Positions 2,732 through 14,547 of a stretch of 64,000 nt of DNA are shown piece by piece. Position 1 is the first letter of the stretch. The number at the start of each line of letters is the position of its first letter. Both the position numbers and the translations under genes were made by a program. The DNA is from Streptomyces liangshanensis (GTDB lineage: Bacteria; Actinomycetota; Actinomycetes; Streptomycetales; Streptomycetaceae): assembly GCF_011694815.1 (NCBI RefSeq), contig NZ_CP050177.1:2407001-2471000 (forward strand). The letters are read 5' to 3'. Below the pieces are notes generated by a model. The model saw nothing but the letters and a program-made list of their open reading frames with translations, ran no database searches and was not told the origin of the DNA.

Positions 2732-2941
2732 TCAGCCACCCAATGCGCCGCGCTTCACCGCCGAGACGAACGACGACCAGCCGTCCGCGGGGAAGGCGAG
2801 CACGGGGCCGAGCGGGTTCTTGCTGTCCCGGACGGGGACGATGTCGGCCACGCCGTCGGCGACCTCAAGACACTGGCCGCCGTCCGAGTTGCTGTAAGAG
2901 CTCTTACGCCAAGTGACTGTGGTCAGGTCGAGGGATCGCAC
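2732..2941 (-). CDS. DUF397 domain protein
   Basis: A 69-residue protein matching the DUF397 family (W-R-K-S-S-Y-S near residue 11, C-L-E-V-A, then the V-R-D-S-K core). DUF397 genes in Streptomyces usually sit next to an XRE regulator of the DUF5753 type, as here. The GTG start at 2941 overlaps the end of the XRE gene by 19 bases. A GGAGGAA ribosome site lies inside the upstream coding sequence, indicating translational coupling. In related pairs (WhiJ/BldB-like neighbourhoods) such proteins modulate development, but no specific role can be claimed here. Confidence 0.85.
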   Translation of the reverse strand: MRSLDLTTVTWRKSSYSNSDGGQCLEVADGVADIVPVRDSKNPLGPVLAFPADGWSSFVSAVKRGALGG

Positions 2942-3765
2942 GGTACTTCCTCCAGAAGGCGCAGGATGAACTTCCGCGACTCAGCAGGGGACAGCGCCAG
3001 GTCGCGCACAAAATCGTACGTGAGCTGCAACCGTTCAACCGGTGCGGTTTCCTCGATCAGATCGCCCCGGACATCGTTCTCCGCGTAGGCCACGGTACGC
3101 CCATCGAGGAGCCGAAGAAACATCACGTCAGCGTTCGAGAGCCCATGCAGCCCCGCGCTGAACGGCAGTACCTGCACGGTCACTTCGCCCCGCTCCGTCG
3201 CATCCCGCAGGTACTCCAACTGTGCTCGCCACCGGCCCGCGTCCCGTAACTGTGTGCGCAGCACCGCCTCCGACAGAATCGTGCGGAACGGTGGCGCGTC
3301 GTCTCCCGCCAGCAACTCCCGCCGCCCCATCCGCGCGTCGACCTGCTGATCCAATTCCTCACCCTTGAGGCCACCGGCTGCCAGCAGCTCCCGCGCATAC
3401 CCCGGCGTCTGCAACAGCCCCGGCAGAACGCTCACGGCGTAGTGCCACAAACTCGTCGCCTCGGCCTCCAGGGACATGTACCGCCGATACCGCTCCCGGA
3501 ACTGCGTCTTGTCACTGACCGCCAGCTCCCACAGGGCCAGCAACAGCCCCGGGGTCCCGTAATACGTGTCGAGCGCCTGGACCACCTCCGGGCCCCCCAC
3601 CGTCTCGCCCTTCTCCATCTTGCCGAACAACGACCAGTCCCAGCCCAGCCGTTCACCGAGCTGCCGCAGGCTGTCCCCGCGCTGGAGGCGCAACGAGCGC
3701 AACTCCTCCGCGAACCGCGCGCGGGGCTCCCTGCTGCGGCCCGTGACCACTCGTCTCGTCGGCAT
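2923..3765 (-). CDS. XRE-family regulator with DUF5753 domain
   Basis: A 280-residue DNA-binding regulator. Residues about 15-75 form a Cro/C1-type helix-turn-helix (RSLRLQRGDSLRQLGERLG, then WSLFGKMEKGE). The remainder is the DUF5753 ligand- or partner-binding domain typical of Streptomyces (LPGLLQTPGYARELL, then Q-L-E-Y-L near residue 195). The ATG at 3765 is chosen because it follows GGAGGGCAGCGCC and yields the canonical N-terminus; longer in-frame extensions to 4191 run through the divergent promoter region and a neighbouring gene and are not credible. It forms a two-gene unit with DUF397 and is transcribed divergently from the small gene at 3945. Confidence 0.88.
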   Translation of the reverse strand: MPTRRVVTGRSREPRARFAEELRSLRLQRGDSLRQLGERLGWDWSLFGKMEKGETVGGPEVVQALDTYYGTPGLLLALWELAVSDKTQFRERYRRYMSLEAEATSLWHYAVSVLPGLLQTPGYARELLAAGGLKGEELDQQVDARMGRRELLAGDDAPPFRTILSEAVLRTQLRDAGRWRAQLEYLRDATERGEVTVQVLPFSAGLHGLSNADVMFLRLLDGRTVAYAENDVRGDLIEETAPVERLQLTYDFVRDLALSPAESRKFILRLLEEVPCDPST

Positions 3766-4280: not shown

Positions 4281-4612
4281 CGGACGGCCCCCCAGCCGTG
4301 GGCGACACCGTCCACGACCCCGCCCGCGACCGCGTAGGCGTGGTCATGGGCGGGGTAGGCCCCTACCTCCAACTCCGCCCCCTGGGCGGCGGCCAAGAAT
4401 GGGACGCCAACCCGGACCAGGTCCGCCCCCTGACCCCCACCGAACTACTAAGCGCCCGAGTATCCGAAGCCAACACCCGCAGCCGCACAACCCTCGACCT
4501 AGGCCCTCTGCCCGAACGGCAGCCGTGGAGCCCGTCGGTGCAGCTCAGAACCGCCGTCGGGGATAGTGGAGACCTCGTCGACGAAGGAGGCTGCATTGAG
4601 CAGCACGATTGA
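4277..4612 (+). CDS. Small hypothetical protein, coupled to the upstream membrane protein
   Basis: A 111-residue soluble protein. Its N-terminal half (VGDTVHDPARDRVGVVMGG, then Y-L-Q-L-R-P-L-G-G) looks like a small beta-barrel of the kind seen in many short Streptomyces proteins associated with XRE/DUF397 clusters. The GTG start overlaps the preceding stop by four bases. The last codons overlap the start region of the SUKH gene at 4596, so all three genes may be co-translated. No function can be assigned. Confidence 0.65.
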   Translation: MTDGPPAVGDTVHDPARDRVGVVMGGVGPYLQLRPLGGGQEWDANPDQVRPLTPTELLSARVSEANTRSRTTLDLGPLPERQPWSPSVQLRTAVGDSGDLVDEGGCIEQHD

Positions 4613-5213
4613 AGCCTGGTCCCGCGTTACCCGCTGGATGAACGAGAACACGCCTGACCACGCCGATGCTTTGAACGATCCTGCCACTGACGAGCAGATC
4701 GCGCAGGCCGAGGAAAAGATGGGAGTACGTTTGCCCGTCGAGTTGAAGCAGCTCCTGAAAGTGAACAACGGCAGCACCGCCAAGCAGCGGTCCATTGCCG
4801 GGAATGAACGCTACGACATACGAGGCGGCGGCGACTACTCGCCGTTCCCGTTCGACTATGCGTTTTGCGATGTGGAACTCATCTGTTCTTTGTACACGAC
4901 CAACAGGAAAGCGAGCATCGACTTGCAGGAGCCCGGTTCCCGCTACGAGTACTGGAAGGAGGGTTGGATTCCAGTCTTTCGGACCAAGGAAGAGCACAGC
5001 GGACTGTTCCTCGATGTGTCCGGACTCAGCGGGCAGGACCCCGCACCGGTCTACGAGTACGGTGAGGAAAGCTTCCCGGATCTGGCCTTCCCGTCGTTGG
5101 CCGACTATCTGAGCACCATGGCGGATGCATTGGAAGGCATCCGGCCGTTCACGATCATGGGCCGCCGATCGCCGAATTTTCCCGTAGTGCAGGAGGGGCT
5201 GATCCACTGGTAG
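4596..5213 (+). CDS. SMI1/KNR4 (SUKH) family protein, candidate immunity protein
   Basis: A 205-residue protein with the SUKH signature: an acidic helix then L-P-V-E-L-K-Q-L-L-K-V-N-N-G near residue 45, a W-I-P-V-F strand in the middle, and an S-F-P-D-L-A-F-P-S-L-A-D-Y-L segment near the end. SUKH proteins are a major class of immunity proteins in bacterial polymorphic toxin loci, and also occur as stand-alone proteins. The TTG at 4596 is preferred because AAGGAGG sits 5 nt upstream; a GTG at 4566 is an alternative. It converges on the large NucA/NucB-domain gene, with only 42 bp between stops, and both share a hairpin. Base composition (AT-richer codons) resembles that gene more than the core genes. 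Immunity function is inferred. Confidence 0.82.
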   Translation: MSSTIEAWSRVTRWMNENTPDHADALNDPATDEQIAQAEEKMGVRLPVELKQLLKVNNGSTAKQRSIAGNERYDIRGGGDYSPFPFDYAFCDVELICSLYTTNRKASIDLQEPGSRYEYWKEGWIPVFRTKEEHSGLFLDVSGLSGQDPAPVYEYGEESFPDLAFPSLADYLSTMADALEGIRPFTIMGRRSPNFPVVQEGLIHW

Positions 5214-5228
5214 GTGGATCAGCCCCTC
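5193..5228. terminator. Bidirectional hairpin between the SUKH and secreted-nuclease genes
   Basis: A perfect 15-bp stem (5193-5207 with 5214-5228; arms GAGGGGCTGATCCAC and its complement) closed by a 6-nt loop. The SUKH stop codon TAG (5211-5213) lies inside the loop. It sits just beyond the 3' end of the convergent large gene and could terminate both transcripts. Confidence 0.8.
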
Positions 5229-5255
5229 TCCCTCACACTGTTCAGCACCCCACGG

Positions 5256-8200
5256 TCACGGAGTAAAGCCGTTCAGGTCAAGCCAGTAATCGTCCTTGTC
5301 CATCAGCCTGTTCCGGGTGATGAAGGCACCAAAAGGTCGCATGGATTGGACATTCTGGTTTTTGGACATGGTGGCGCGTCCACACTTCTCGTTCCACGTC
5401 GGAAGCGGGTAGCGAAGGTCGGGACGAAGCGTCCATACGCCATTGTCGCCCCTCTTGGCGTACGTCTGAAGACACTGGTCGCCTGAGTCGACCGGGTTGA
5501 ACCCGCCGGCCATGCCCGCACTGTTGTAGCTGGCGGCGAAGGCCAACTCGTCGCAGGAATATGTATCAGGATCGCTTCCTTCATCCAATTCCGGCGAGAG
5601 GGTGGCGTCCGTATTGCGTGCCCAACTTCTCGGGCAGATGACCTCGCGGTTGGCTGTGCTCTGCTTCTTGGCGGGGTTGGTCGGCGACATCACGCCGCTG
5701 CCGAGGTAGGTGAGCGGAGTATCGAACGCCTTGCTCCCGAAATGTCCGGGAAGCTTGTTCTGGGCAAGCCAGGCGTGTGCGGCCGCGGCGGGGAACTTCT
5801 TCGAGTTCATGACGTACGTCGGACTGTACTGATCGAACACACACCCCGGGGACGCCCCCGGGACCGTGGAGTCGCACCGGATCTGCGCTTTGGGACCCTC
5901 GGTACCGACCTTCGCTTCGTTCTCCGTCAGGATTCCCCCGATATCGCCCGTCATGGACCATCCAGGGAAGAGCAGATCCGCCGGCCTGGACTCACCCCAG
6001 CGCCAAATCTGCGACATGGAGTACGTATGCCTGTCGCCCAGGTCGAATTGCCACCACAGACCGTTATCCTCCGTTCGGGGTCCGTTCCTCGTGCAGTCCA
6101 GGGAGCACACATCGTTGACATCTACGAAGATCGCCTCAGTAGCGGCTTCGCCAGTCGCTTCAACCAGTTTGAACTTGAACGCGGTATTCCATCCGATTGA
6201 GTCGGGGTGAACCTTCATCTCGGCCTGGAAGTCGAAGGTGGCGGTTCCGGTCACGCGTCCGTCAACCGATTTGATGAATCCGAACTGTCCTTTGATGCAG
6301 GCTTCTGTGCGGTTGGTCCAGACCTTGCGATTGTCGCGGAATCCGAAGGGTTTGGCCGCGCACCAGGGGACGTAGGTGTTCACGGGTGAGGAGAACTCCC
6401 GCTGAATGGAGTCGAGGGGCTCCAGCCCCTGGGAAGTCGCCTCAGGCGTCATGTCCTCCGGGGTGGTGATGTCGCCGGGCTGCGGGGCGCTGACATCCGG
6501 GTCGGCGAAGGCGATGCTGGGCATGCCGGAGTAGTCGCCCGGTACGAACGCGACAGCGTCGTAGGCCACGTCCTTCTCCGCCGTACCGTCCGATGTCGCG
6601 TTGGACAGCTGAACTTCCGGTGCCTGGTCCTTGAAGTTGTAGGCGCCGAGAGACACCCACTGGTTGGCCGAGTTCCCCTGGTTGACGGTCTTGTTCACCG
6701 CGCCGAACGGCGTGATGATCCGGTAAGTGGCGTTCGAGACCTGGGCTCCCGTGTCCGGGACGTGCACGTACACCTTTGCCTGGCTGCCGGTGATGGCTGA
6801 GTTCAGCTTCCAGTCACCCAGGATGGTCATGCGTCCGCCGTCGCCGCCCAGGTGCGCGGCGTCGCGTGCGTGCGTGTACCAGAAGTGCCCCTGGTAGCCG
6901 CCGCCGATCTGGTGCAGGTCAGCCTTCGCGTCGTATGCCCCCAGGCCCGGTCCCGTCGCGCTCGGATCGGGGTAGAAGGTGAACTGGAACGAGCCGGCTG
7001 TTGTGGTGGTGCCGCAATCGCTCCAGGTGTTGGTGCCTGCTGGGACGGATGCGACGACCTTCGCGCCCGAGGGAGCGCCGGAGCACACCGGTGTGCCGTA
7101 TTGGAGCCGGTAGCCGCGACCGGGCTCGCTGATCAACGTCTGGTACTTGACATTCTCGAAACCGCAGGTGGTGGCACAGTCGGACTTCCAGGTGGCGTTG
7201 GGCGCGTTCCACCAGTACTGGGTGTAGCAGGCGGCGTCCGGGCAATCCGGCGGGTGGGCGGTGTCGCAGTTGTTCTTGGCGTTGCAGAACGTGTCGAGGG
7301 GCGGCGCGACGTGGGCCCGGTTGTATCGTGCGCTGCCTTCGAATGCGTAGGGCAGGTCCGAACCGTTCCAGTAGGCGGGACGGAAGCCGGCCGATGAGAA
7401 CCCGGCTTCTCCCGGCCAGTCCTGTCGCCCGGAGGTGGCATAGGAGTGTCCGGTGTCGATGGACCAGGCGGCCCAGCCCATCACCTTCTCCTCGTACGGC
7501 CATTTCTGCGGCTGCGCGGCGTCCTTGGCGGCAAGCGGGTCGATGTCGGTGTTCATGAACGCCAGCCGGGACGCGGGATAGACCGGGTTGGCGGGGTTGT
7601 TGTACCAGCCGAGACCCCAACTGCCGTTGGTTGCCTCGTCCGCCTTCGCATTGAAGCCGAGGTTGTAGTTCCAGACGGCCGTGAACCAGTTCTCGGGCTT
7701 GGCCGGGTTGTCGTTGTTCACGGCGATCGTCTGTCCCGCCTTGTGGACCTCGTTCCACTTGTCGGCGAGGATGTAGAGCGACGCGGCTATGTTGGTCGTG
7801 TAGTCGATGGCGATGGCGCGTTGCGTGGCGACCGGGCGCGAGTGTTCGCCCTCCTTCTCGAAACCTGCCTTGCGCATGCCGTCGGTGACCTGACCGACGC
7901 CGTAGCCGCAGTCGGACAGGTTCCAGTGGATGGCCCAGAAGTCGGTGAGACTTCCACCGGTCTGGTGACCGTAGTAGCCGTCCACTGCCGCGAGTGGGCT
8001 GCCCATCTGACCCGGGATAGCGCCGGATTCCGCCTGCCACAGGTTGGACTCCTGTGCGAGGACGCCAAGTTCGACCTGTGCGGGGATGGTTCCGCCGGTG
8101 ACCAGGTCGGGGCGGGGAAACATGCCTTGCGGGTCGATGGTGCCGAGCCCGGTCTGCGCGCGCCAGCCGCCCTGGGTGATGTATCCCGAGCGCAGGTTGT

Positions 8201-9626
8201 TGCGGACAGCCATGTCAACGGCCCACTCGACCTGGTTGGAGGTCGGCTGCAGGGCCTGGGCGTCGACATCGTTGCGGGCCACCGAGCACCAGGCATCCGT
8301 ATCGACCGGATCGTGCGCCCGCGAATCGTCGGCAGCCGCCGCCATCGCACTCATCGTTGACGTCTGCGGCTTCGACGAGCCGGTCAGCGCCGGTGACGGC
8401 TTGCTCCCCGCGGTAACGCCGGGTTCGGCGGCCTTCTGCTTCGTGCGCCGGCCCGTGCTCGGCGCCGTGCTGGTGATGGTCAGCACATGACTGGTCCGGC
8501 CCAGCGTTCTTTCCGCGGCCGGTTCGGTGGTCTCGGTCTTGGTGAAGCCGCGGCCCGCGCTGGTGATGTGGTCAACGCCTGCCTGCACGGCCGGGGAGAC
8601 CACCGGGTCGACGGCGAGGCGACCGCGGGTGGAGACCTCCGCGTCGGGTGAGACCTTCAGCGCCTTGACACCGCTCGCCGCGAAGTTCTTCTCCCGCGTC
8701 GCCGTACCGGTGAGGTAGACCGTCCCGTCCATGCCCTGGCGCAGATTCATCTCCGCCAACTTGCCACTCGCGACGGTCGCTCTCCTGCCGCGGGCGTAGG
8801 TGTGCACGCCGGCGACGGTGTTATCGGTCCGGTCGAGATAGGTGACCGTGCCGTCACCAGCCACACGGATACCGTACGGGGCGTGCTTCGTGGCCGCGAG
8901 TTCGTCGACCTCGCCCTTGCGGTCGATGTGGACGAGCCTGTTTCCGGAGGCGGCGACAGCACCGTCGTCGGTGGGGACAGCGGAGGTGATCTCGCCCGTC
9001 GCGGTGGTGTTCGCGACAGTGGCGCCCTTGGTGTTCACCGTGACCAGGCGTGTCTTGGTGTCGCGGAGCGCGGTGAAAACTGCGGTGTGGGTGGTGGGGC
9101 TGCAGGTGGGGTCGAAGTACGCCAACGACGCCGTGAAGGGCAGCTTGGTCACGCTGCCGTCATCGAGATTCACGATCGCGGTGAACGCGCCACCCATCAT
9201 GAGGTCCGGCTTGTTGGTGAAAGTACGGGGTGCGTAGACAACGGCCGCGTAGTGGTCGTTCATCACGCACTGGTTGCCGATCCAGGTGTCGGCCGGTAGC
9301 TGCGGCTCACTCAACACCGCTACGGTCTTCCAGTCGTAGCCAGATGTGCTGTCAGCGACCAGGAGATGGAGTCCATCGCTGTCGGCCGCAGCGGTCACTG
9401 CCCGGTCGGCCGATGCCTTCCAGCCCTTCCCGAGAACCGTGTCACGGTCCTTCAACGGGACTCCCGACGACGAGGACCTCTTTTCCGACGCGGTGACCTT
9501 TTCCCGTATCGAGCCCTTGGGTGGTTTCGGTATCGACGCTTGCGCGGTGCTGACAGTGAGGGTGGACGCGATCAACGCGACTGCCATGACGGCAACCGGT
9601 ATTCTCGCTTTCTTCCGGAATCTCAA
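5256..9626 (-). CDS. Giant secreted protein: propeller-like, transglycosylase-like, golvesin-like and C-terminal NucA/NucB nuclease domains
   Basis: A protein of about 1456 residues with a signal peptide (RFRKKARIPVAVMAVALIA, cleavage after A-Q-A near residue 32). Residues about 75-400 look like a repeat-built beta structure, possibly a propeller. Residues about 455-680 resemble a lytic-transglycosylase/lysozyme fold: a candidate catalytic Glu526 in AQESNLWQAE, then GYGVGQV near residue 573, and AVWNYNLGFN near 650 in place of the usual Y-N-A-G. A Cys-rich segment follows. A golvesin/Xly-like binding module lies at about 930-1032 (GDWKLNSAI to AFVPGD). The last 210 residues match the actinobacterial NucA/NucB deoxyribonuclease pattern (I-R-C-D, later V-I-C-P-R, then SCDELAFAASYN near 1357). 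The TTG at 9626 is chosen for its AAGGAG site and because it directly precedes the signal peptide. The gene is last in a run of genes led by a MacB-type transporter. Predicted exported wall-acting nuclease; activity is inferred. Confidence 0.72.
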   Translation of the reverse strand: MRFRKKARIPVAVMAVALIASTLTVSTAQASIPKPPKGSIREKVTASEKRSSSSGVPLKDRDTVLGKGWKASADRAVTAAADSDGLHLLVADSTSGYDWKTVAVLSEPQLPADTWIGNQCVMNDHYAAVVYAPRTFTNKPDLMMGGAFTAIVNLDDGSVTKLPFTASLAYFDPTCSPTTHTAVFTALRDTKTRLVTVNTKGATVANTTATGEITSAVPTDDGAVAASGNRLVHIDRKGEVDELAATKHAPYGIRVAGDGTVTYLDRTDNTVAGVHTYARGRRATVASGKLAEMNLRQGMDGTVYLTGTATREKNFAASGVKALKVSPDAEVSTRGRLAVDPVVSPAVQAGVDHITSAGRGFTKTETTEPAAERTLGRTSHVLTITSTAPSTGRRTKQKAAEPGVTAGSKPSPALTGSSKPQTSTMSAMAAAADDSRAHDPVDTDAWCSVARNDVDAQALQPTSNQVEWAVDMAVRNNLRSGYITQGGWRAQTGLGTIDPQGMFPRPDLVTGGTIPAQVELGVLAQESNLWQAESGAIPGQMGSPLAAVDGYYGHQTGGSLTDFWAIHWNLSDCGYGVGQVTDGMRKAGFEKEGEHSRPVATQRAIAIDYTTNIAASLYILADKWNEVHKAGQTIAVNNDNPAKPENWFTAVWNYNLGFNAKADEATNGSWGLGWYNNPANPVYPASRLAFMNTDIDPLAAKDAAQPQKWPYEEKVMGWAAWSIDTGHSYATSGRQDWPGEAGFSSAGFRPAYWNGSDLPYAFEGSARYNRAHVAPPLDTFCNAKNNCDTAHPPDCPDAACYTQYWWNAPNATWKSDCATTCGFENVKYQTLISEPGRGYRLQYGTPVCSGAPSGAKVVASVPAGTNTWSDCGTTTTAGSFQFTFYPDPSATGPGLGAYDAKADLHQIGGGYQGHFWYTHARDAAHLGGDGGRMTILGDWKLNSAITGSQAKVYVHVPDTGAQVSNATYRIITPFGAVNKTVNQGNSANQWVSLGAYNFKDQAPEVQLSNATSDGTAEKDVAYDAVAFVPGDYSGMPSIAFADPDVSAPQPGDITTPEDMTPEATSQGLEPLDSIQREFSSPVNTYVPWCAAKPFGFRDNRKVWTNRTEACIKGQFGFIKSVDGRVTGTATFDFQAEMKVHPDSIGWNTAFKFKLVEATGEAATEAIFVDVNDVCSLDCTRNGPRTEDNGLWWQFDLGDRHTYSMSQIWRWGESRPADLLFPGWSMTGDIGGILTENEAKVGTEGPKAQIRCDSTVPGASPGCVFDQYSPTYVMNSKKFPAAAAHAWLAQNKLPGHFGSKAFDTPLTYLGSGVMSPTNPAKKQSTANREVICPRSWARNTDATLSPELDEGSDPDTYSCDELAFAASYNSAGMAGGFNPVDSGDQCLQTYAKRGDNGVWTLRPDLRYPLPTWNEKCGRATMSKNQNVQSMRPFGAFITRNRLMDKDDYWLDLNGFTP

Positions 9627-9706
9627 AGCATCTCCTTGGACTTCATGCGCGCCACGCCATGTGGCGAACGCTCGACGTGAGTTGGTCCGAAGCGTGCGGG
9701 GAGCGG

Positions 9707-10921
9707 CTAGTGGCGTAGTGCCTCGACGGGCTGGATACGGCTGGCCCGCCACGCGGGATAGAGACCCGCGAGCAGGCCGGTGAAGAGGCCGATGCCAGGC
9801 GCGGCGGCGACGGTCGCGAAGGAGATCACGGGGGTCCAGTCACGCGCGACGGCGACGATGACCACGGTGAGGGTGCCGAGCGAGGTGCCGATCAGACCGC
9901 CGAGTGTGCCGAGTACCGCTGACTCGGTGAGGAACTGGGCGGTGATGTGGCGACTGCGGGCGCCCAGCGCACGGCGCAGGCCGATCTCGCCGGTGCGCTC
10001 CAGCACCGCGACCAGGGTTGTATTGGCGATGCCGATCGTACCGATGAACAAACAAATCACGGCTAGCAGGAGAAACAGCTCGTCGAGGTCCCCGGACACC
10101 GCGCTGCGCAAGGTCCGGGGGTCGGGCGGAGGAATCGCTTTGAAGTAGTCGGGATGGGCCGGATCCAGCGCGACCGGTGCTTCCGCCGCGACCTGGACCG
10201 CGGCACCGGGCGCCGTGGAGATGAGCATCTTGGCGTCGCTCTTGGGCGCGCCCCAGAGCTGCTCGGCGGTCGAGCGGGGCACCACGACGGACAGCAGGAG
10301 GTCCGCCTTGCGTTTCACGTCGCTGACGATGCCCACGACGGTGAAGGCCTCGTCGCCGATGAAGACAGCCGGATGGGTCTCAAGCGTGGTGATGCCGAGC
10401 CGCGAAGCCACGCCGGCGCCGACAACGGCGACTTGCTGGTCGGTCCTGTCGTGCCAGCGGTCGAAGAGCCGCCCCTCGACCAGGGTGGGTTCGGCCGCCT
10501 CGAGTACGCCGGAGGAGGCGGCGACGACCTGCGTGTTGCCGTTGGAGCCCGCGGCGGTGATCGGCGACGCCCGTACCGCGTGGTCCTCGTCCAGTTGGAC
10601 GGACCAGTAGACGCCCGCGTGCTCGACCCCGTTGAGCTGCTCCACCCTGGTGTCGGCGTCCGACGGGAAGGCGAGAACGCTGAACTCGTCCTGTTCGCCC
10701 GCGACATCCTCGACCGTCACTTCGGTCGCGCTCAGCAGGCTGAACCGCTCGTCGATCTGCGAGGATGCGGTCGCGGTGAGACCGAGGATGGCGACGAACG
10801 CCCCGACACCGAGCAAGGTGCCCACGGAGGTGAGCGCCGCGCGGGCCGGACGTTGCAGAATTCCGGCAAGCGATTCGGAGAGCAGGTCCTGCCAGGGCAG
10901 ACGTGAGCGCGGGGGCTTCAT
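9707..10921 (-). CDS. MacB/FtsX-type ABC transporter permease
   Basis: A 404-residue permease. One transmembrane helix near residues 30-50 is followed by a large extracellular MacB-type core domain (about 50-270) and three C-terminal helices of the FtsX domain (LLAVICLFIGTIGIANTTL, then the E-R-T-G-E-I-G-L-R-R-A-L-G-A coupling motif, and a last hydrophobic pair). It ends with the family hallmark G-L-Y-P-A-W-R-A-S-R-I-Q-P-V-E-A-L-R. The ATG overlaps the ATPase stop (ATGA). MacB-type permeases act as mechanotransmitters moving peptides, antibiotics or proteins across the envelope. About 80 bp separate it from the large secreted-nuclease gene. Cargo is unknown. Confidence 0.9.
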   Translation of the reverse strand: MKPPRSRLPWQDLLSESLAGILQRPARAALTSVGTLLGVGAFVAILGLTATASSQIDERFSLLSATEVTVEDVAGEQDEFSVLAFPSDADTRVEQLNGVEHAGVYWSVQLDEDHAVRASPITAAGSNGNTQVVAASSGVLEAAEPTLVEGRLFDRWHDRTDQQVAVVGAGVASRLGITTLETHPAVFIGDEAFTVVGIVSDVKRKADLLLSVVVPRSTAEQLWGAPKSDAKMLISTAPGAAVQVAAEAPVALDPAHPDYFKAIPPPDPRTLRSAVSGDLDELFLLLAVICLFIGTIGIANTTLVAVLERTGEIGLRRALGARSRHITAQFLTESAVLGTLGGLIGTSLGTLTVVIVAVARDWTPVISFATVAAAPGIGLFTGLLAGLYPAWRASRIQPVEALRH

Positions 10922-11622
10922 TCCTTCACCCGTTCGGTCATTTTGCCGTCGCGGATGGTCAGAGTGCGACAACCTCGTTGCGCGACCGCGGTGTCGTGGG
11001 TGATGACCAGAACGGTCATCCCGGCCTGATTGAGGTCTTCGAGAAGCCCAAGAATCGTATCGGCGGTCGCGGTGTCGAGGTTGCCGGTCGGCTCGTCGCA
11101 CAACAGCAGAGAGGGTCCTCCGACCAAGGCCCGGGCGATCGCCACGCGTTGGCGCTCCCCGCCGGACAAGGTCGTGGGGAGCGCCTCCACCCGGTGCCCC
11201 AGGCCCACTCGGAGGAGAGCCTGCCGTGCGAGGTCACCGCGTGCCTTACGGGGAGTGCCGTTGTAGACGAGAGCGAGTGCCACGTTTTCCACCGCGGTGC
11301 GATGAGGCAGCAGGTGGAACGACTGGAAGACGAAGCCGATGCGTTGCCCGCGCAGAGCCGTGCGATCGCGGTCACGGAGATTGACGGTGTCGAAGCCGTC
11401 CAGCAGGTAACTGCCCCTGGTAGGAATGTCGAGAAGGCCCACGATGTTGAGGAACGTCGACTTGCCGGCCCCCGAGGGCCCGACGACGGTGACGAACTCT
11501 CCTTGATGAACCGTCAGGTCGCAGCCGTCGAGGGCCGTGAACGGGGGCGGTCCCGGATAGCGAAGGCCAGCCTGCCGCAGTTCGATGACCGGAGGCCTCC
11601 CGGGCTGGTCGTCGCCCATCAC
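10918..11622 (-). CDS. ABC transporter ATPase, MacB/LolD type
   Basis: A 234-residue ATP-hydrolysing subunit with all motifs in order: Walker A GPSGAGKST near residue 50, Q-loop F-V-F-Q-S-F near 97, signature LSGGERQRVA near 154, Walker B LLLCDEPTGNLD near 175 and an H-loop I-T-H-D near 209. The spacing and the L-L-P-H-R-T-A-V-E-N-V segment are typical of the MacB/LolD subfamily. GTG at 11622 (GGAG 5 nt upstream) and the adjacent ATG at 11619 are both possible; the overlap with the adaptor stop (TGATG) signals coupling. It energises the adjoining permease. Confidence 0.92.
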   Translation of the reverse strand: MMGDDQPGRPPVIELRQAGLRYPGPPPFTALDGCDLTVHQGEFVTVVGPSGAGKSTFLNIVGLLDIPTRGSYLLDGFDTVNLRDRDRTALRGQRIGFVFQSFHLLPHRTAVENVALALVYNGTPRKARGDLARQALLRVGLGHRVEALPTTLSGGERQRVAIARALVGGPSLLLCDEPTGNLDTATADTILGLLEDLNQAGMTVLVITHDTAVAQRGCRTLTIRDGKMTERVKE

Positions 11623-12998
11623 CTGGACTCCGGTGGAGCCTGCACTCCGGTGATGACCCGGTCCCCCTCCGCCAGCCGCCCCCCGGCGGCGGGGCGTACT
11701 TCGACATAGCCGTCACCGCTGGCTCCGGCCCTGACGGGAACCCTGCGCTGATGGCTCGTCCTGTCCACCACGACCACAGAGGTCTTTCCGTCCGCCGCGG
11801 CGAAGACCGCGGTGACCGGGACAACGATGGCCTTGCCACCGGTGGATGCCGCCTGGACCGTGAGGCGCAGGTCCTGTCCCGCAAGCCTCGCGTCCAGGTC
11901 CTTCTCCGGCTTCACAGCCATCCGGTAGCCGCTGGGGCCGGAGTTCGGCTGGACGGCGCCGCCGCCCTCCGGCTGCTGATCCGAAGTGATCGTGTCACCG
12001 ACGGAAACCACGACCCCGGACGCGCTCATCCCCGTCAGTTCGGATTCGATGTCGACCTTCTGACCGACTCGCACGAGGCCCCTCTGCTGCTGCCGCAGAA
12101 AGCCGTGCACCACCAGGGCACCGGAGGACACAGTGAGAACGGGACCGGAGACTGTCGCGCCCACCGTGGTCGTGACCGTGTCGACACGGGCGGGAAAGCG
12201 CTTCAGGAACACCACCTCGGCAGCCGGCAGCATGGGGCCGCTCTTGGCCAGGGTGCCGGCCAGTTGCTCTTCGGCCTTGCGTAGATCCTCCTCCGCCCGC
12301 TCCGTCCGCCGGTCGGCTTCCTTGTCGCCGCCGCCCTTGACAGCATCACGGGAATCCTCCATGGCGCGCTGCGCCGCGGTCACGGCGTCCCGGGCGCTCT
12401 CCACGGCGGCGTCGCCGTCCGGATCGGCGGGCATCGGGTCGTACCCGACACTTTGGTAGAGCATGGCGAGAGCGGACTTCGTGCCGCTCCCGAAGTGACC
12501 CTTGGCGTCCGCGCCTGATCCATGGCCCAGTTTCTCGAGGGCCCTTTGGAGTTGGGCGACGTCGTCCCCCTCGGCGCCCGGCTTGAGATCCCGGTACACA
12601 GGCAGGTTTCCCTCGAGGGCGATCACCGGCCGGCCCGAGACCTCCAGCAGCACCTGACCGGCTTTGATCTTCGCCCCGGAGAGCAGCGGCAGCTTCGTCA
12701 CCACCGCCGCCCCTGCTTCACTGCCCCCTGAGGGAGCCACCGACACGGATTGTTCGGCCGTCGCCGTGCCGCGCACGATCACGGAGTCGGTCAGTACGCG
12801 GCGCTCCACAGGAGCGGTGAGAACACTGGGCACAGGAGGTACGGAATCCGCGACGGCCTGGGCCGGGGACTTGATCATTTGAGCGGCCGTCAGCCCCGCG
12901 CCGGAGACCAGCACGGCCCCCGCCGCCACGCCAGTCACCCACCGGCGCCGGCTCACCAGGCCGGGAAATGCCGACCGGGGTTCCTTTTCCTTGTCCAT
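11619..12998 (-). CDS. Membrane-fusion-like adaptor with peptidoglycan-binding domain
   Basis: A 459-residue envelope protein. A single N-terminal transmembrane segment lies at about residues 20-40. It is followed by adaptor-type beta-barrel and lipoyl-like strands (near 60-125), then a peptidoglycan-binding module (L-K-P-G-A-E-G-D-D-V-A-Q-L-Q-R-A-L near 138, G-H-F-G-S-G-T near 165). A charged coiled-coil hairpin (about 195-250) precedes C-terminal HlyD-like beta domains. This architecture is the Gram-positive counterpart of MacA, with the wall-binding domain perhaps anchoring the pump to peptidoglycan. It is translationally coupled to the ATPase gene. Family assignment is firm; the transported substrate is not known. 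Confidence 0.85.
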   Translation of the reverse strand: MDKEKEPRSAFPGLVSRRRWVTGVAAGAVLVSGAGLTAAQMIKSPAQAVADSVPPVPSVLTAPVERRVLTDSVIVRGTATAEQSVSVAPSGGSEAGAAVVTKLPLLSGAKIKAGQVLLEVSGRPVIALEGNLPVYRDLKPGAEGDDVAQLQRALEKLGHGSGADAKGHFGSGTKSALAMLYQSVGYDPMPADPDGDAAVESARDAVTAAQRAMEDSRDAVKGGGDKEADRRTERAEEDLRKAEEQLAGTLAKSGPMLPAAEVVFLKRFPARVDTVTTTVGATVSGPVLTVSSGALVVHGFLRQQQRGLVRVGQKVDIESELTGMSASGVVVSVGDTITSDQQPEGGGAVQPNSGPSGYRMAVKPEKDLDARLAGQDLRLTVQAASTGGKAIVVPVTAVFAAADGKTSVVVVDRTSHQRRVPVRAGASGDGYVEVRPAAGGRLAEGDRVITGVQAPPESR

Positions 12999-13025
12999 AC
13001 TCCCCCCAACCCCGTCTGCTCCGCC

Positions 13026-14003
13026 CTAGCCGCGGAGCACTCTTTCAGCGGCCTTCACCGCTGCCGTGTTCTTCTTCTTGAGTTCATCCAGGGCAAGGGC
13101 GTTCTGCGCGATCTGCTCGTGCTGGATCGAGGTCTCCTCCTCGAACCAGATCTTGACCAGGTCGGTTTGCTTCTTGCAGTCGATGTCCGCGATCGCCGTG
13201 GCTATTTCTGCCTGGGAGGCCTGTCCGTTCCCGGAGGAGGGGTTGAGTTTCACGGCGTCATAAGGATCAGCAACGTCGTAGCCGCTCTTCTTCATGCAGT
13301 CGGACCAGTCCTTGATGGCCGACCGCACCTTGGGGCGCTCCTGTGATTTCGTCTGGCTCTCGTACGCGAGCGTCTCGGGGAGGCTCCCGTCCAGACGTCC
13401 ACCTACCTTGGCGAACGAGGATCCCGCGCAACCGTCCTTGGGGATCTTCTTTCCCTTGTACGTGTCCGGAGCGAGCTCCGCGTTGGGCCCTCGGCCCTTA
13501 CGGCCGGTCAGAACAGCGACGGCTGCTTCGCTGAGCTGGGGACCCTGCGGGCGCGCTTCTTCGGATTCCGACAACTGGTAGCCATATCGTGCGGCGGTCT
13601 CACGGTCCGTGATGCCGTAGCGCCGGGGCATGTTCATGCTGTTGTTACTCGGCGGCGGATTCGTTCCCGCCGGGGGGAACTTGATGTCGAACCCGAAGCC
13701 CGCCATGCACTCTTCCTGGAGATTCCGTCCCGCCTGCTCAACGGTGACGGACTCCTCGTAGGACTGCATATACGTCTCCAGCGGCAGCACAAGCCCTTTC
13801 GCCAGCCCGGTTCTCGGAATAGCGGCCGGCCAGGCACCCCTCTCCACGAGAGGAGTGCCTGCTCGACCGACGGCGCCGGGAGGCTCGCCAGGCCCCTTCG
13901 TACTCGATGTGTCGCAGGCGCTCGCACCTGCCACCACGATGCCGACGAGCCCCAGGACCGCACTGCCCCGACCGAAGGCATGACGCATCCGCGATCGCCT
14001 CAT
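13026..14003 (-). CDS. Putative lipoprotein of the transporter locus
   Basis: A 325-residue protein with an N-terminal Arg-rich stretch, a hydrophobic helix and a lipobox-like A-S-A-C at about residues 27-30, predicting diacylglycerol attachment on the outer membrane face. The rest is soluble and charged, with Cys residues near 95, 195, 240 and 275 and a Lys-rich C-terminus. No family was recognised. A second in-frame ATG at 13988 could be the start. It ends 28 bp before the adaptor gene in the same direction, so it probably belongs to the same operon and may act with the transporter or its exported protein. Confidence 0.75.
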   Translation of the reverse strand: MRRSRMRHAFGRGSAVLGLVGIVVAGASACDTSSTKGPGEPPGAVGRAGTPLVERGAWPAAIPRTGLAKGLVLPLETYMQSYEESVTVEQAGRNLQEECMAGFGFDIKFPPAGTNPPPSNNSMNMPRRYGITDRETAARYGYQLSESEEARPQGPQLSEAAVAVLTGRKGRGPNAELAPDTYKGKKIPKDGCAGSSFAKVGGRLDGSLPETLAYESQTKSQERPKVRSAIKDWSDCMKKSGYDVADPYDAVKLNPSSGNGQASQAEIATAIADIDCKKQTDLVKIWFEEETSIQHEQIAQNALALDELKKKNTAAVKAAERVLRG

Positions 14004-14055
14004 CTTGCCGTACCTATTTCTTGAGTGAGATGTGCACCGGCGCCCCGAAGCCCAG

Positions 14056-14547
14056 TTACGCGAAATGCTGGGAGGCGTTGTTGTTCTTCAGGGCGGCAAT
14101 GAAATTCTCCGCCACGAAGCACCCGCCGGCATGCTCGAAGAGCTGAGCCGTGCCGGTGTAACCGGAGTTGAAATAGACTCGGTAGTTGTCCGCGTCAGCG
14201 CAGTTGGTCGCGGATGCGGCGTTGTTCTTCACCGACGTCCCGCTCCCGTCACCCGGCCCGAAGACAAATACATAGTCGACTGCCGTCGCCCCGTTGTAGC
14301 TGATGGTCTGCCCGGCATAGTTGTAAACGTTGCCGTAGAACGTCGCCAAGGCGCTGTTCGGGACTCCCGACGAGCGGTACTTGAGGTAAAGGTCACCACT
14401 GCTGCACCCCGCGTACGGACAGTTACTGTCGACGTACTTCGTGGTGTTCGCAGCTTCTGCCGACGTGGCGGGCAACAGCATTCCTGACGCGGCTATCGCC
14501 GCGGCACACACGACTCCAAGACGCTGACGCAGAGATCCTGACTTCAT
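14056..14547 (-). CDS. Small secreted protein, first gene of the transporter locus
   Basis: A 163-residue protein with a clear signal peptide (residues 1-33, ending S-A-E-A-A). The mature part is about 130 residues, rich in Asn, Gly, Ser and Tyr, with five cysteines (pattern C-P-Y-A-G-C, then one in N-C-A-D and one in G-G-C-F). The composition suggests a disulphide-bonded beta-rich domain. The ATG has an excellent GGGAGGAAACA ribosome site. It is the most upstream gene of the minus-strand run to 5256. It might be a cargo, an inhibitor or a marker protein; no family was recognised. Confidence 0.78.
   Translation of the reverse strand: MKSGSLRQRLGVVCAAAIAASGMLLPATSAEAANTTKYVDSNCPYAGCSSGDLYLKYRSSGVPNSALATFYGNVYNYAGQTISYNGATAVDYVFVFGPGDGSGTSVKNNAASATNCADADNYRVYFNSGYTGTAQLFEHAGGCFVAENFIAALKNNNASQHFA

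What the first reader, a model, noticed from the sequence alone, without database searches (positions are those of the whole stretch)
4596..14547. Candidate exported-effector locus: giant NucA/NucB-type secreted protein, MacB-type pump with wall-binding adaptor, and a SUKH immunity-family gene
The 1456-residue exported protein at 5256-9626 ends in a NucA/NucB-like nuclease domain (C-D-E-L-A-F-A motif) after a lysozyme/transglycosylase-like segment and a golvesin-like module. That is an architecture expected of a wall-crossing antibacterial effector. Its 3' neighbour is a SUKH gene, the most common immunity family of polymorphic toxins, and both stops share one hairpin. Upstream in the same direction lie a MacB-type ATPase/permease, an adaptor with a peptidoglycan-binding domain, a lipoprotein and a small secreted protein. 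A convergent rather than downstream immunity gene, and a dedicated MacB-like pump beside a signal-peptide-bearing effector, are unusual. Alternative: the large protein serves DNA scavenging or wall turnover and the SUKH gene is unrelated.
Basis: partly seen in the sequence, partly recalled or inferred. Interest (0 to 1): 0.8.

Follow-up and report, generated by a model that had tools for sequence, protein, structure and literature searches.

The report
Streptomyces wall-crossing exotoxin with swappable warheads
This Streptomyces locus encodes a large secreted protein whose DNA-cutting tip is one of several interchangeable tips in a widespread family of what look like bacterial weapons, next to a gene that most likely protects the producer from that tip.

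Summary
In detail: gene order, domains and the convergent SUKH gene are as described. The 1456-aa protein is a propeller/SLT-transglycosylase/golvesin carrier with an exchangeable C-terminus. Of 67 carrier frames, 33 end in a GDSL/SGNH lipase, 14 in this NucA/NucB-like nuclease, 9 in an unknown domain, 3 in RHS; 6 have no or a cut tail, 2 an out-of-frame tail. On a tree of 79 carriers the tail changed at least 12 times; a single nuclease clade is rejected (p-AU 9e-6). The nuclease also sits on other carriers. In 60 further loci found by the nuclease alone, 56 have a SUKH (35) or DUF6461-like (21) gene within 400 bp of the stop; SUKH is convergent in 34 of 35 and its divergence tracks the nuclease, not the carrier. 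SGNH tails are followed by small membrane proteins (23 of 32). Best reading: a polymorphic exotoxin family with soluble immunity to the nuclease form. The MacB-type pump is optional (5 of 30 nuclease-tailed carrier loci). Toxicity, neutralisation and entry into cells are untested; the tail's structure prediction failed (pLDDT 34).

The parts
4596..5213 (+). SUKH-1 (SMI1/KNR4) gene, 205 aa, no signal peptide by inspection: predicted cytosolic immunity protein
   Evidence: PF09346 E 1.4e-13; convergent SUKH beside the nuclease in 44 of 74 nuclease loci
5192..5229 (.). 17-bp hairpin between the convergent genes, enclosing the SUKH stop codon: likely two-way terminator (inferred)
   Evidence: -39.6 kcal/mol, z -4.1
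5256..9626 (-). giant exported protein, 1456 aa (TTG start)
9531..9626 (-). Sec-type signal peptide (basic start, hydrophobic core, AQA)
   Evidence: read from the sequence; no predictor run
8622..9467 (-). beta-propeller domain, about residues 54-335
   Evidence: AlphaFold2 model, 10-residue pLDDT means 52-90 in this part; Foldseek to PDB: TolB, NHL and other propellers, best E 5.5e-8, TM-scores low because only part of the model aligns
7227..8339 (-). SLT lytic-transglycosylase-like region, residues 430-800; invariant Q-E(526)-S, GYG..Q and AxWxYNxG
   Evidence: 27 of 27 homologues keep the motifs; PF01464 in 22 of 27
6543..6815 (-). golvesin C-terminal-type beta domain, residues 938-1028
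   Evidence: PF25275 E 2.6e-11
5259..6530 (-). exchangeable tail, residues 1033-1456; NucA/NucB-like nuclease core about 1251-1456 with C-D1359-E1360 and N1425
   Evidence: alignment A1: C, D, E, R and N invariant in 14 of 14; PF14040 in 9 of 14
9707..10921 (-). MacB-type permease (optional neighbour)
   Evidence: MacB_PCD and FtsX; in 5 of 30 nuclease-tailed carrier loci
10918..11619 (-). ABC ATPase of FtsE/LolD/MacB type
11619..12998 (-). adaptor with peptidoglycan-binding domain
   Evidence: PF01471 E 2.8e-6
13026..14003 (-). lipoprotein of unknown family that accompanies nuclease-tailed carriers
   Evidence: tblastn: 20 of 30 nuclease-tailed carrier loci, 4 of 42 SGNH- or unknown-tailed
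14056..14547 (-). small secreted cysteine-containing protein, no Pfam or NCBIfam hit
   Evidence: homologue in 10 of 30 nuclease-tailed carrier loci

Best explanation
A polymorphic exotoxin. The protein is exported through its signal peptide (inferred). Its beta-propeller and golvesin domains probably bind the target surface, and its SLT-type domain cuts peptidoglycan on the way in (folds shown or likely, roles inferred). The C-terminal NucA/NucB-like domain reaches the cytosol of a competing, probably related, bacterium by an unknown step and degrades DNA (nuclease family shown through homologues, activity inferred). The convergent SUKH gene makes a soluble protein that neutralises this particular nuclease in the producer and its kin (genetic coupling shown, binding inferred). 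The tail and its immunity gene behave as one exchangeable cassette on a conserved carrier.
For: Tail exchange on one carrier. Tree of 79 carriers: 12 tail changes (shuffled mean 36.6), at least 4 for the nuclease state; a single nuclease clade rejected, p-AU 9.4e-6. The window carrier is 70-78% identical to four nuclease-tailed carriers (L001, L002, L003, L008), then 55-59% to 13 SGNH- or unknown-tailed ones, and only 39-41% to the nuclease-tailed L069, L070 and L074. Same nuclease on other carriers, incl. DNRLRE proteins L139 and L131; carrier fused to RHS. Immunity: first 14 loci, 13 have SUKH (10) or DUF6461-like (3) next to the stop; 60 further loci, 56 do. Background PF09346: 68 matches in 10 genomes of about 85 Mb. 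SUKH tracks the nuclease: r 0.82 (n 45, 0 of 2000 permutations); partial r 0.77 given the carrier, against 0.16 for SUKH-carrier given the nuclease (n 18) (permutation does not remove shared ancestry). In L121 and L123 the nuclease genes are 79% alike up to the stop, then SUKH is replaced by DUF6461. A NucB-like tip of S. suis WapA was toxic in E. coli, partly relieved by its neighbour gene, and killed competitors (PMC12704120, passages).
Against: No activity, secretion or killing data. Structure prediction of the tail failed (mean pLDDT 34.4), so the fold rests on a family match and motifs. PF14040 matches 9 of 14 tails and not the window's own. Of the 20 next-weaker nuclease hits, only 10 have an adjacent SUKH or DUF6461 by profile, so some relatives may be plain secreted nucleases. 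A cytosolic inhibitor beside an exported nuclease could also just guard against unexported enzyme. L102 has no immunity candidate and L107 only transposase-like debris. DUF6461 calls are partly by a 3-sequence profile: 4 of 10 sampled ones do not match PF20062.
Confidence: 0.78

Rival explanations
1. Secreted scavenging or biofilm nuclease with a barnase/barstar-type (recalled) or NucA/Nin-type safety inhibitor: SUKH only protects the producer before export, and the enzyme works outside cells on free DNA.
For: NucB of Bacillus is a secreted nuclease; Nin inhibits both NucA and NucB (PMC5758888, passages). Some weaker relatives of about 430-456 aa (L170, L171, L173, L175) lack a recognised immunity gene next to them (in L170 the next gene is transposase-like).
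Against: The nuclease is joined to carriers that also bear lipase, RHS or unknown tails; immunity genes diversify with the nuclease and faster than the carrier (mean identity SUKH 31%, nuclease 43%, carrier 56%, n 18) and switch family; a wall-cutting domain is not needed to degrade free DNA.
Confidence: 0.15
2. The SUKH gene is an unrelated neighbour, or a stand-alone phage-defence gene.
For: SUKH matches number 3-11 per genome in 10 Streptomyces genomes; the window SUKH matches PADLOC candidate PDC-M40A (E 1.1e-12, residues 6-70).
Against: Adjacent in 10 of 14 and 35 of 60 loci at about 0.8 SUKH matches per Mb, absent from the fetched flanks of 33 of 33 SGNH-tailed carriers, and co-diverging with the nuclease.
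Confidence: 0.02
3. Dedicated MacB-type secretion cassette for the giant protein.
For: Cassette upstream and in the same direction in the window and in L001, L099/L179 and L105/L185; a permease homologue was found beside none of 42 lipase- or unknown-tailed carriers, so it is confined to nuclease-tailed ones.
Against: Permease homologue in only 5 of 30 nuclease-tailed carrier loci plus one partial match (L182), and on the opposite strand in L083; giant has its own signal peptide (by inspection).
Confidence: 0.05

Closest known systems
Polymorphic toxin systems (Zhang et al. 2012, PMC3482391; passages read)
   Same: Conserved export/carrier region, variable C-terminal toxin, adjacent immunity gene; SUKH is listed there as immunity for many HNH-fold nuclease toxins
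   Different: Their Tox-NucA is listed as HNH/EndoVII with GH, N, N, E motifs (by recall the Serratia/Anabaena-type NucA), not Bacillus NucA/NucB; their method counted unidirectional genes as operons and looked at head-to-head pairs, so convergent immunity genes would be easy to miss (inference); golvesin and DUF6461 do not occur in the part of the text held
Streptococcus suis WapA-CT1 (PMC12704120; passages read)
   Same: NucB-like toxin tip on a secreted Gram-positive giant with a DNRLRE domain; tip toxic in E. coli, partly relieved by adjacent Imm1, mediates competition
   Different: RHS/LysM carrier, no SLT-golvesin carrier mentioned in the passages; SUKH and SMI1 do not occur in that text
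Streptomyces umbrella toxins (PMC11062931; passages read)
   Same: Extracellular Streptomyces polymorphic toxins that block growth of competing species
   Different: Multi-protein particles (UmbA/B/C) with immunity gene downstream; here one chain with propeller, SLT and golvesin domains and mostly convergent immunity
Bacillus NucB / NucA-Nin (PMC5758888; passages read)
   Same: Nuclease family (PF14040 in 9 of 14 tails), D-E pair and Asn of the active site; neighbouring inhibitor in the NucA case
   Different: Small stand-alone enzyme; no carrier or toxin context; Nin is, by recall, not a SUKH protein
Pore-forming colicin loci (recalled)
   Same: Immunity gene convergent to the toxin gene
   Different: Unrelated proteins and targets

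Membership tests
Polymorphic toxin system | Conserved N-terminal part with exchangeable C-terminal domain | tested here: met
   67 carriers with SGNH, NucB-like, unknown, RHS or no tail; 12 tail changes on the tree
Polymorphic toxin system | Same C-terminal domain on other carriers | tested here: met
   44 of the 60 test loci have no match to the SLT-golvesin carrier in the nuclease frame; two of them have DNRLRE
Polymorphic toxin system | Cognate immunity gene next to the toxin end | tested here: met
   SUKH or DUF6461-like next to 13 of 14 and 56 of 60
Polymorphic toxin system | Immunity gene co-directional, downstream | tested here: not met
   Convergent in 44 of 45 SUKH cases and 13 of 24 DUF6461-like cases; a usual but not defining trait
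Polymorphic toxin system | Toxicity and specific neutralisation | not testable with these tools
   needs experiment
NucA/NucB nuclease (PF14040) | Profile match | tested here: met
   9 of 14 homologous tails at E up to 10, best 3.6e-7; window copy itself no hit
NucA/NucB nuclease (PF14040) | Active-site D-E and metal-binding N | tested here: met
   D, E and N invariant in 14 of 14; roles from PMC5758888; the equivalence of the Asn is by motif, not structure
NucA/NucB nuclease (PF14040) | beta-beta-alpha fold | tested here: inconclusive
   model pLDDT 34; no PDB hit by profile
SLT lytic transglycosylase | Catalytic Glu and motifs | tested here: met
   E526, GYG..Q and AxWxYNxG invariant in 27 of 27 (motif names recalled); PF01464 in 22 of 27, the window copy not among them
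SUKH-1 immunity | PF09346 match above cut-off | tested here: met
   also 8 of 10 SUKH genes sampled from the test set
DUF6461 (alternative immunity) | PF20062 match above cut-off | tested here: inconclusive
   L002 and 6 of 10 sampled from the test set match; L008 and L069 do not but are BLAST relatives of L002
Umbrella toxin | ALF repeats and lectin partners | not tested
   the Pfam scan of the giant lists only Golvesin_C; no search with Umb proteins was made
Effector with dedicated MacB pump | Pump genes linked to the effector | tested here: not met
   5 of 30 nuclease-tailed carrier loci

The most novel reading that the evidence does not exclude
One Streptomyces carrier acts as a single-chain, wall-drilling delivery vehicle for interchangeable warheads without any injection machine, and each warhead's immunity gene lies in the compartment where that warhead acts: soluble SUKH or DUF6461 proteins for the DNA-cutting tail, small membrane or lipoproteins for the lipase-like tail (23 of 32) and the unknown tail (6 of 9), against 14 of 169 background genes and 0 of 14 nuclease tails. 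DUF6461 would be a new immunity family that has repeatedly replaced SUKH opposite closely related nucleases.
Probability: 0.45. Interest if true: 0.85.

Novelty: new variant of a known kind. Interest (0 to 1): 0.72.

Why it matters
Streptomyces are known for small-molecule antibiotics; protein weapons such as umbrella toxins were described only recently. The SLT region of this carrier was found in 28 of 101 sampled Streptomyces genomes, with up to 8 places per genome, and the nuclease tail in 126 of 295. In the top 20 plasmid rows listed for each part the proteins are mostly annotated as hypothetical or as SGNH/GDSL hydrolase (20 of 47 and 20 of 33 records listed). The family offers a testable route by which a single secreted protein could cross a thick Gram-positive wall, a convergent toxin-immunity layout that surveys of unidirectional operons would miss, and a candidate function for DUF6461, a family named in no paper of the library searched.

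Tried and rejected
Structure prediction of the tail (5 rows) gave pLDDT 34 and was not used for a fold search. The carrier model (mean pLDDT 47.9) is usable only for the propeller and part of the golvesin domain; the SLT region is under 50. Profile searches of the PDB with the tail and the SLT region, and single-sequence ones, gave no nuclease or SLT hit. PHROGs gave nothing for 4 proteins. NCBIfam had no hit at E up to 0.1 for the giant or the SUKH gene. Chance neighbourhood of SUKH was rejected. The idea that the pump is the exporter was rejected by its rarity. A free-DNA scavenger is kept as a rival. A weak match of the SLT region to Endonuclease_NS (E 0.023 in the window; 2 of 27 members, best 0.0019) is treated as chance. 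One short carrier match (G090:C1:100607) was not fetched. Two carriers (L046, L079) whose tail lies out of frame were left as broken and not counted as SGNH or nuclease.
Full report
WHAT IS THERE. The window lies in a Streptomyces chromosome (relatives; G000:C1:2407001-2471000). The giant gene runs 9626-5256 on the minus strand from a TTG with a ribosome-binding site, with a signal peptide by inspection. The convergent SUKH gene is 4596-5213. Between them is a 17-bp perfect hairpin, 5192-5229, that encloses the SUKH stop codon; the giant's stop lies beyond it with 26 nt between.

DOMAINS. Pfam finds only Golvesin_C in the giant. Homologues fill in the rest. A 27-member alignment of the middle region keeps Q-E-S, GYG..Q and AxWxYNxG in every row, and 22 of 27 members match the SLT transglycosylase family, best 1.7e-5; the window copy is not one of them. 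The tail has no hit by itself, but 9 of 14 homologous tails match PF14040 DNase_NucA_NucB, best 3.6e-7; C-D-E (D1359, E1360), the N-R pair and N1425 are invariant in 14 of 14. In Bacillus licheniformis NucB the D-E pair (D93, E94) and N117 are metal and catalytic residues (PMC5758888, passages); the equivalence of the Asn is by motif only. AlphaFold2 gives a moderately to well supported beta-propeller for about residues 54-335 (10-residue pLDDT means 52-90), nearest to TolB and NHL propellers. The model of the tail itself failed (pLDDT 34).

THE TAIL IS EXCHANGEABLE. The first relatives already split: four of eight match to the end, four only to about residue 1070-1120 of the 1498-aa frame. 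In 101 Streptomyces genomes, 28 have the SLT region, with up to 8 places per genome. I fetched the places bar one short match and examined 67 carrier frames including the window and L001-L008. Tails by BLAST cluster: SGNH/GDSL lipase 33 (Pfam run on two of them, both match), NucB-like 14, one unknown family 9, RHS repeats 3 (L095 twice, L096), no or cut tail 6, out-of-frame tail 2. L095 has SLT, Golvesin_C, DUF6531 and RHS repeats in one protein. On a tree of 79 carriers (30 nuclease, 33 SGNH, 9 unknown, 4 none, 3 RHS) the tail type changes at least 12 times, the nuclease state at least 4 (quick tree, LG+G4), and a single nuclease clade is rejected (p-AU 9.4e-6; the group was named after a first look at the data). 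The window carrier is nearest to nuclease-tailed L001, L002, L003 and L008 (70-78%), then to 13 SGNH- or unknown-tailed carriers (55-59%), and only 39-41% identical to nuclease-tailed L069, L070 and L074.

THE NUCLEASE TRAVELS TOO. A profile of the 14 tails matches 126 of 295 Streptomyces genomes (E up to 0.001). In the 60 test loci the nuclease lies in frames of 171 to 1764 aa, the shortest perhaps fragments; 16 have the SLT-golvesin carrier, 44 do not. Among the 44, L139 and L131 are DNRLRE proteins. Outside Streptomyces nothing reached 1e-20 in 148 genomes of 81 genera of the class, Streptomyces included, though one Kitasatospora-labelled and one Embleya plasmid are among the 47 plasmid records with a match at 1e-5.

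IMMUNITY. Beside the first 14 nuclease tails stand a convergent SUKH gene (10; Pfam above cut-off in 9, L057 below it) or a DUF6461-like gene (L002 and L008 convergent, L069 co-directional; PF20062 hit for L002, BLAST kinship for the other two); in L084 a SUKH gene lies 1.2 kb away behind transposase-like debris (judged by eye). I then tested the next 60 nuclease hits in order of E-value that were not already fetched (down to 1.2e-54), with profiles built only from the first 14 loci: within 400 bp of the stop, SUKH convergent 34, SUKH co-directional 1, DUF6461-like convergent 11, DUF6461-like co-directional 10, none 4. Of those four, L118 and L133 have DUF6461-like genes beyond transposase-like genes, L107 has transposase-like debris and L102 a large synthetase-like gene (these names are by eye). 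In samples of ten, 8 SUKH calls and 6 DUF6461-like calls pass the Pfam cut-off. The 74 nucleases fall into 68 clusters at 90% identity. Of the next 20 weaker hits, 4 have an adjacent SUKH and 6 an adjacent DUF6461-like gene by profile; L158 has SUKH behind a transposase-like gene; L164, L166, L168 and L169 have a gene that looks DUF6461-like by eye; L170, L171, L173, L175 and L176 have none adjacent. Background: 68 SMI1_KNR4 matches (E up to 0.001) in 10 genomes of about 85 Mb. Among the lipase-tailed carriers no SUKH or DUF6461 gene was found in the fetched flanks; among the unknown-tailed ones only L044 had a SUKH gene, 1 kb downstream.

COUPLING. Pairwise identity of SUKH follows that of the nuclease (r 0.82, n 45, 0 of 2000 permutations; shared ancestry is not removed). 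In the 18 loci with the SLT-golvesin carrier the partial correlation of SUKH with the nuclease given the carrier is 0.77, of SUKH with the carrier given the nuclease 0.16; mean identities are nuclease 43%, SUKH 31%, carrier 56%. In L121 and L123 the nuclease DNA is 79% identical over 1.6 kb and the similarity stops at the stop codon; beyond it one has convergent SUKH, the other co-directional DUF6461. Other pairs of 55-70% identical nucleases also differ in immunity family. A relative on a plasmid of Streptomyces sp. AD2-2 shows the same pair in a GenBank record: a giant protein followed by a convergent SMI1/KNR4 gene; of two other plasmid stretches looked at, pSV2 has a convergent and NBC_00299 a co-directional unnamed gene there.

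OTHER TAILS. The first gene after an SGNH tail is a small (<300 aa) membrane or lipoprotein within 300 bp in 23 of 32, after the unknown tail in 6 of 9, after the nuclease tail in 0 of 14, and in 14 of 169 background genes from the same loci (my own gene caller and a hydropathy rule). This fits immunity in the compartment where each tail would act, but a lipase chaperone or chance operon partner is not excluded.

NEIGHBOURS UPSTREAM. The MacB permease is found in 5 of 30 nuclease-tailed carrier loci (window, L001, L083, L179, L185; L182 partial) and beside none of the 42 lipase- or unknown-tailed ones; in L083 it points away from the giant. Some loci end at contig ends, so this is a lower bound. 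The lipoprotein of 13026-14003 is found in 20 of 30 against 4 of 42.

MECHANISM. Shown: domain make-up (part by homologues), tail exchange, coupling of nuclease and immunity gene. Inferred: export by Sec, receptor binding by propeller/golvesin, wall cutting by SLT, entry into the cytosol, DNA degradation, inhibition by SUKH. A soluble inhibitor argues that the nuclease can meet cytosolic DNA; it does not by itself prove delivery to other cells. The strongest outside support is the S. suis WapA-CT1 work, where a NucB-like tip on a DNRLRE/RHS giant was toxic in E. coli, was partly relieved by its neighbour, and mediated competition (PMC12704120, passages).

PRIOR ART. Searches: golvesin (10 papers, none on a bacterial toxin by title and abstract start), DUF6461 (none), PF14040 / NucA NucB (10 papers, which hold only strings beginning with PF14040 and are about Plasmodium), SUKH with Streptomyces and polymorphic toxin, umbrella and polymorphic toxins (20 of 73 listed), NucB with immunity protein (15 of 27 listed), secreted Streptomyces RHS toxins (12 of 53 listed). 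Passages were read of PMC3482391, PMC12691689, PMC11796102, PMC13392607, PMC11062931, PMC5758888 and PMC12704120. I saw no description of this carrier or of DUF6461 as immunity in those listings or passages; most subscription papers are not in the library.

Noticed in passing
L095:1-19501 and L096: SLT-golvesin carrier fused to RHS repeats, with tips that differ between two neighbouring genes and a third locus; neighbours not studied for immunity.
   Followed up: partly
L121 and L123: 79% identical nuclease genes with different immunity families; DNA similarity ends at the nuclease stop codon.
   Followed up: partly
L002:8326-14539: Carrier with DUF6461 downstream and a SUKH gene upstream on the opposite strand: possible double immunity.
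   Followed up: no
L118, L133, L158, L084: Transposase-like genes or debris sit between the nuclease and its immunity gene.
   Followed up: no
L004, L006, L044, L048, L050, L052, L055, L056, L060: An unknown tail family of about 430-450 aa (178 aa in L060), no Pfam hit for the L004 copy, six of nine followed by a very small membrane protein.
   Followed up: partly
window 13026-14003: Lipoprotein family without Pfam hit above cut-off that accompanies nuclease-tailed carriers in 20 of 30 loci.
   Followed up: partly
window 4596-5213: Residues 6-70 of the SUKH protein match PADLOC candidate PDC-M40A (E 1.1e-12).
   Followed up: no
L079 and L046: Carrier genes whose tail lies out of frame; L079 keeps a SUKH gene about 1.3 kb beyond the early stop (broken gene or sequencing error; not mended).
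   Followed up: no
window 2732-3765: A helix-turn-helix gene followed by a small DUF397-like gene (by recall, a common Streptomyces pair) not far beyond the SUKH gene.
   Followed up: no
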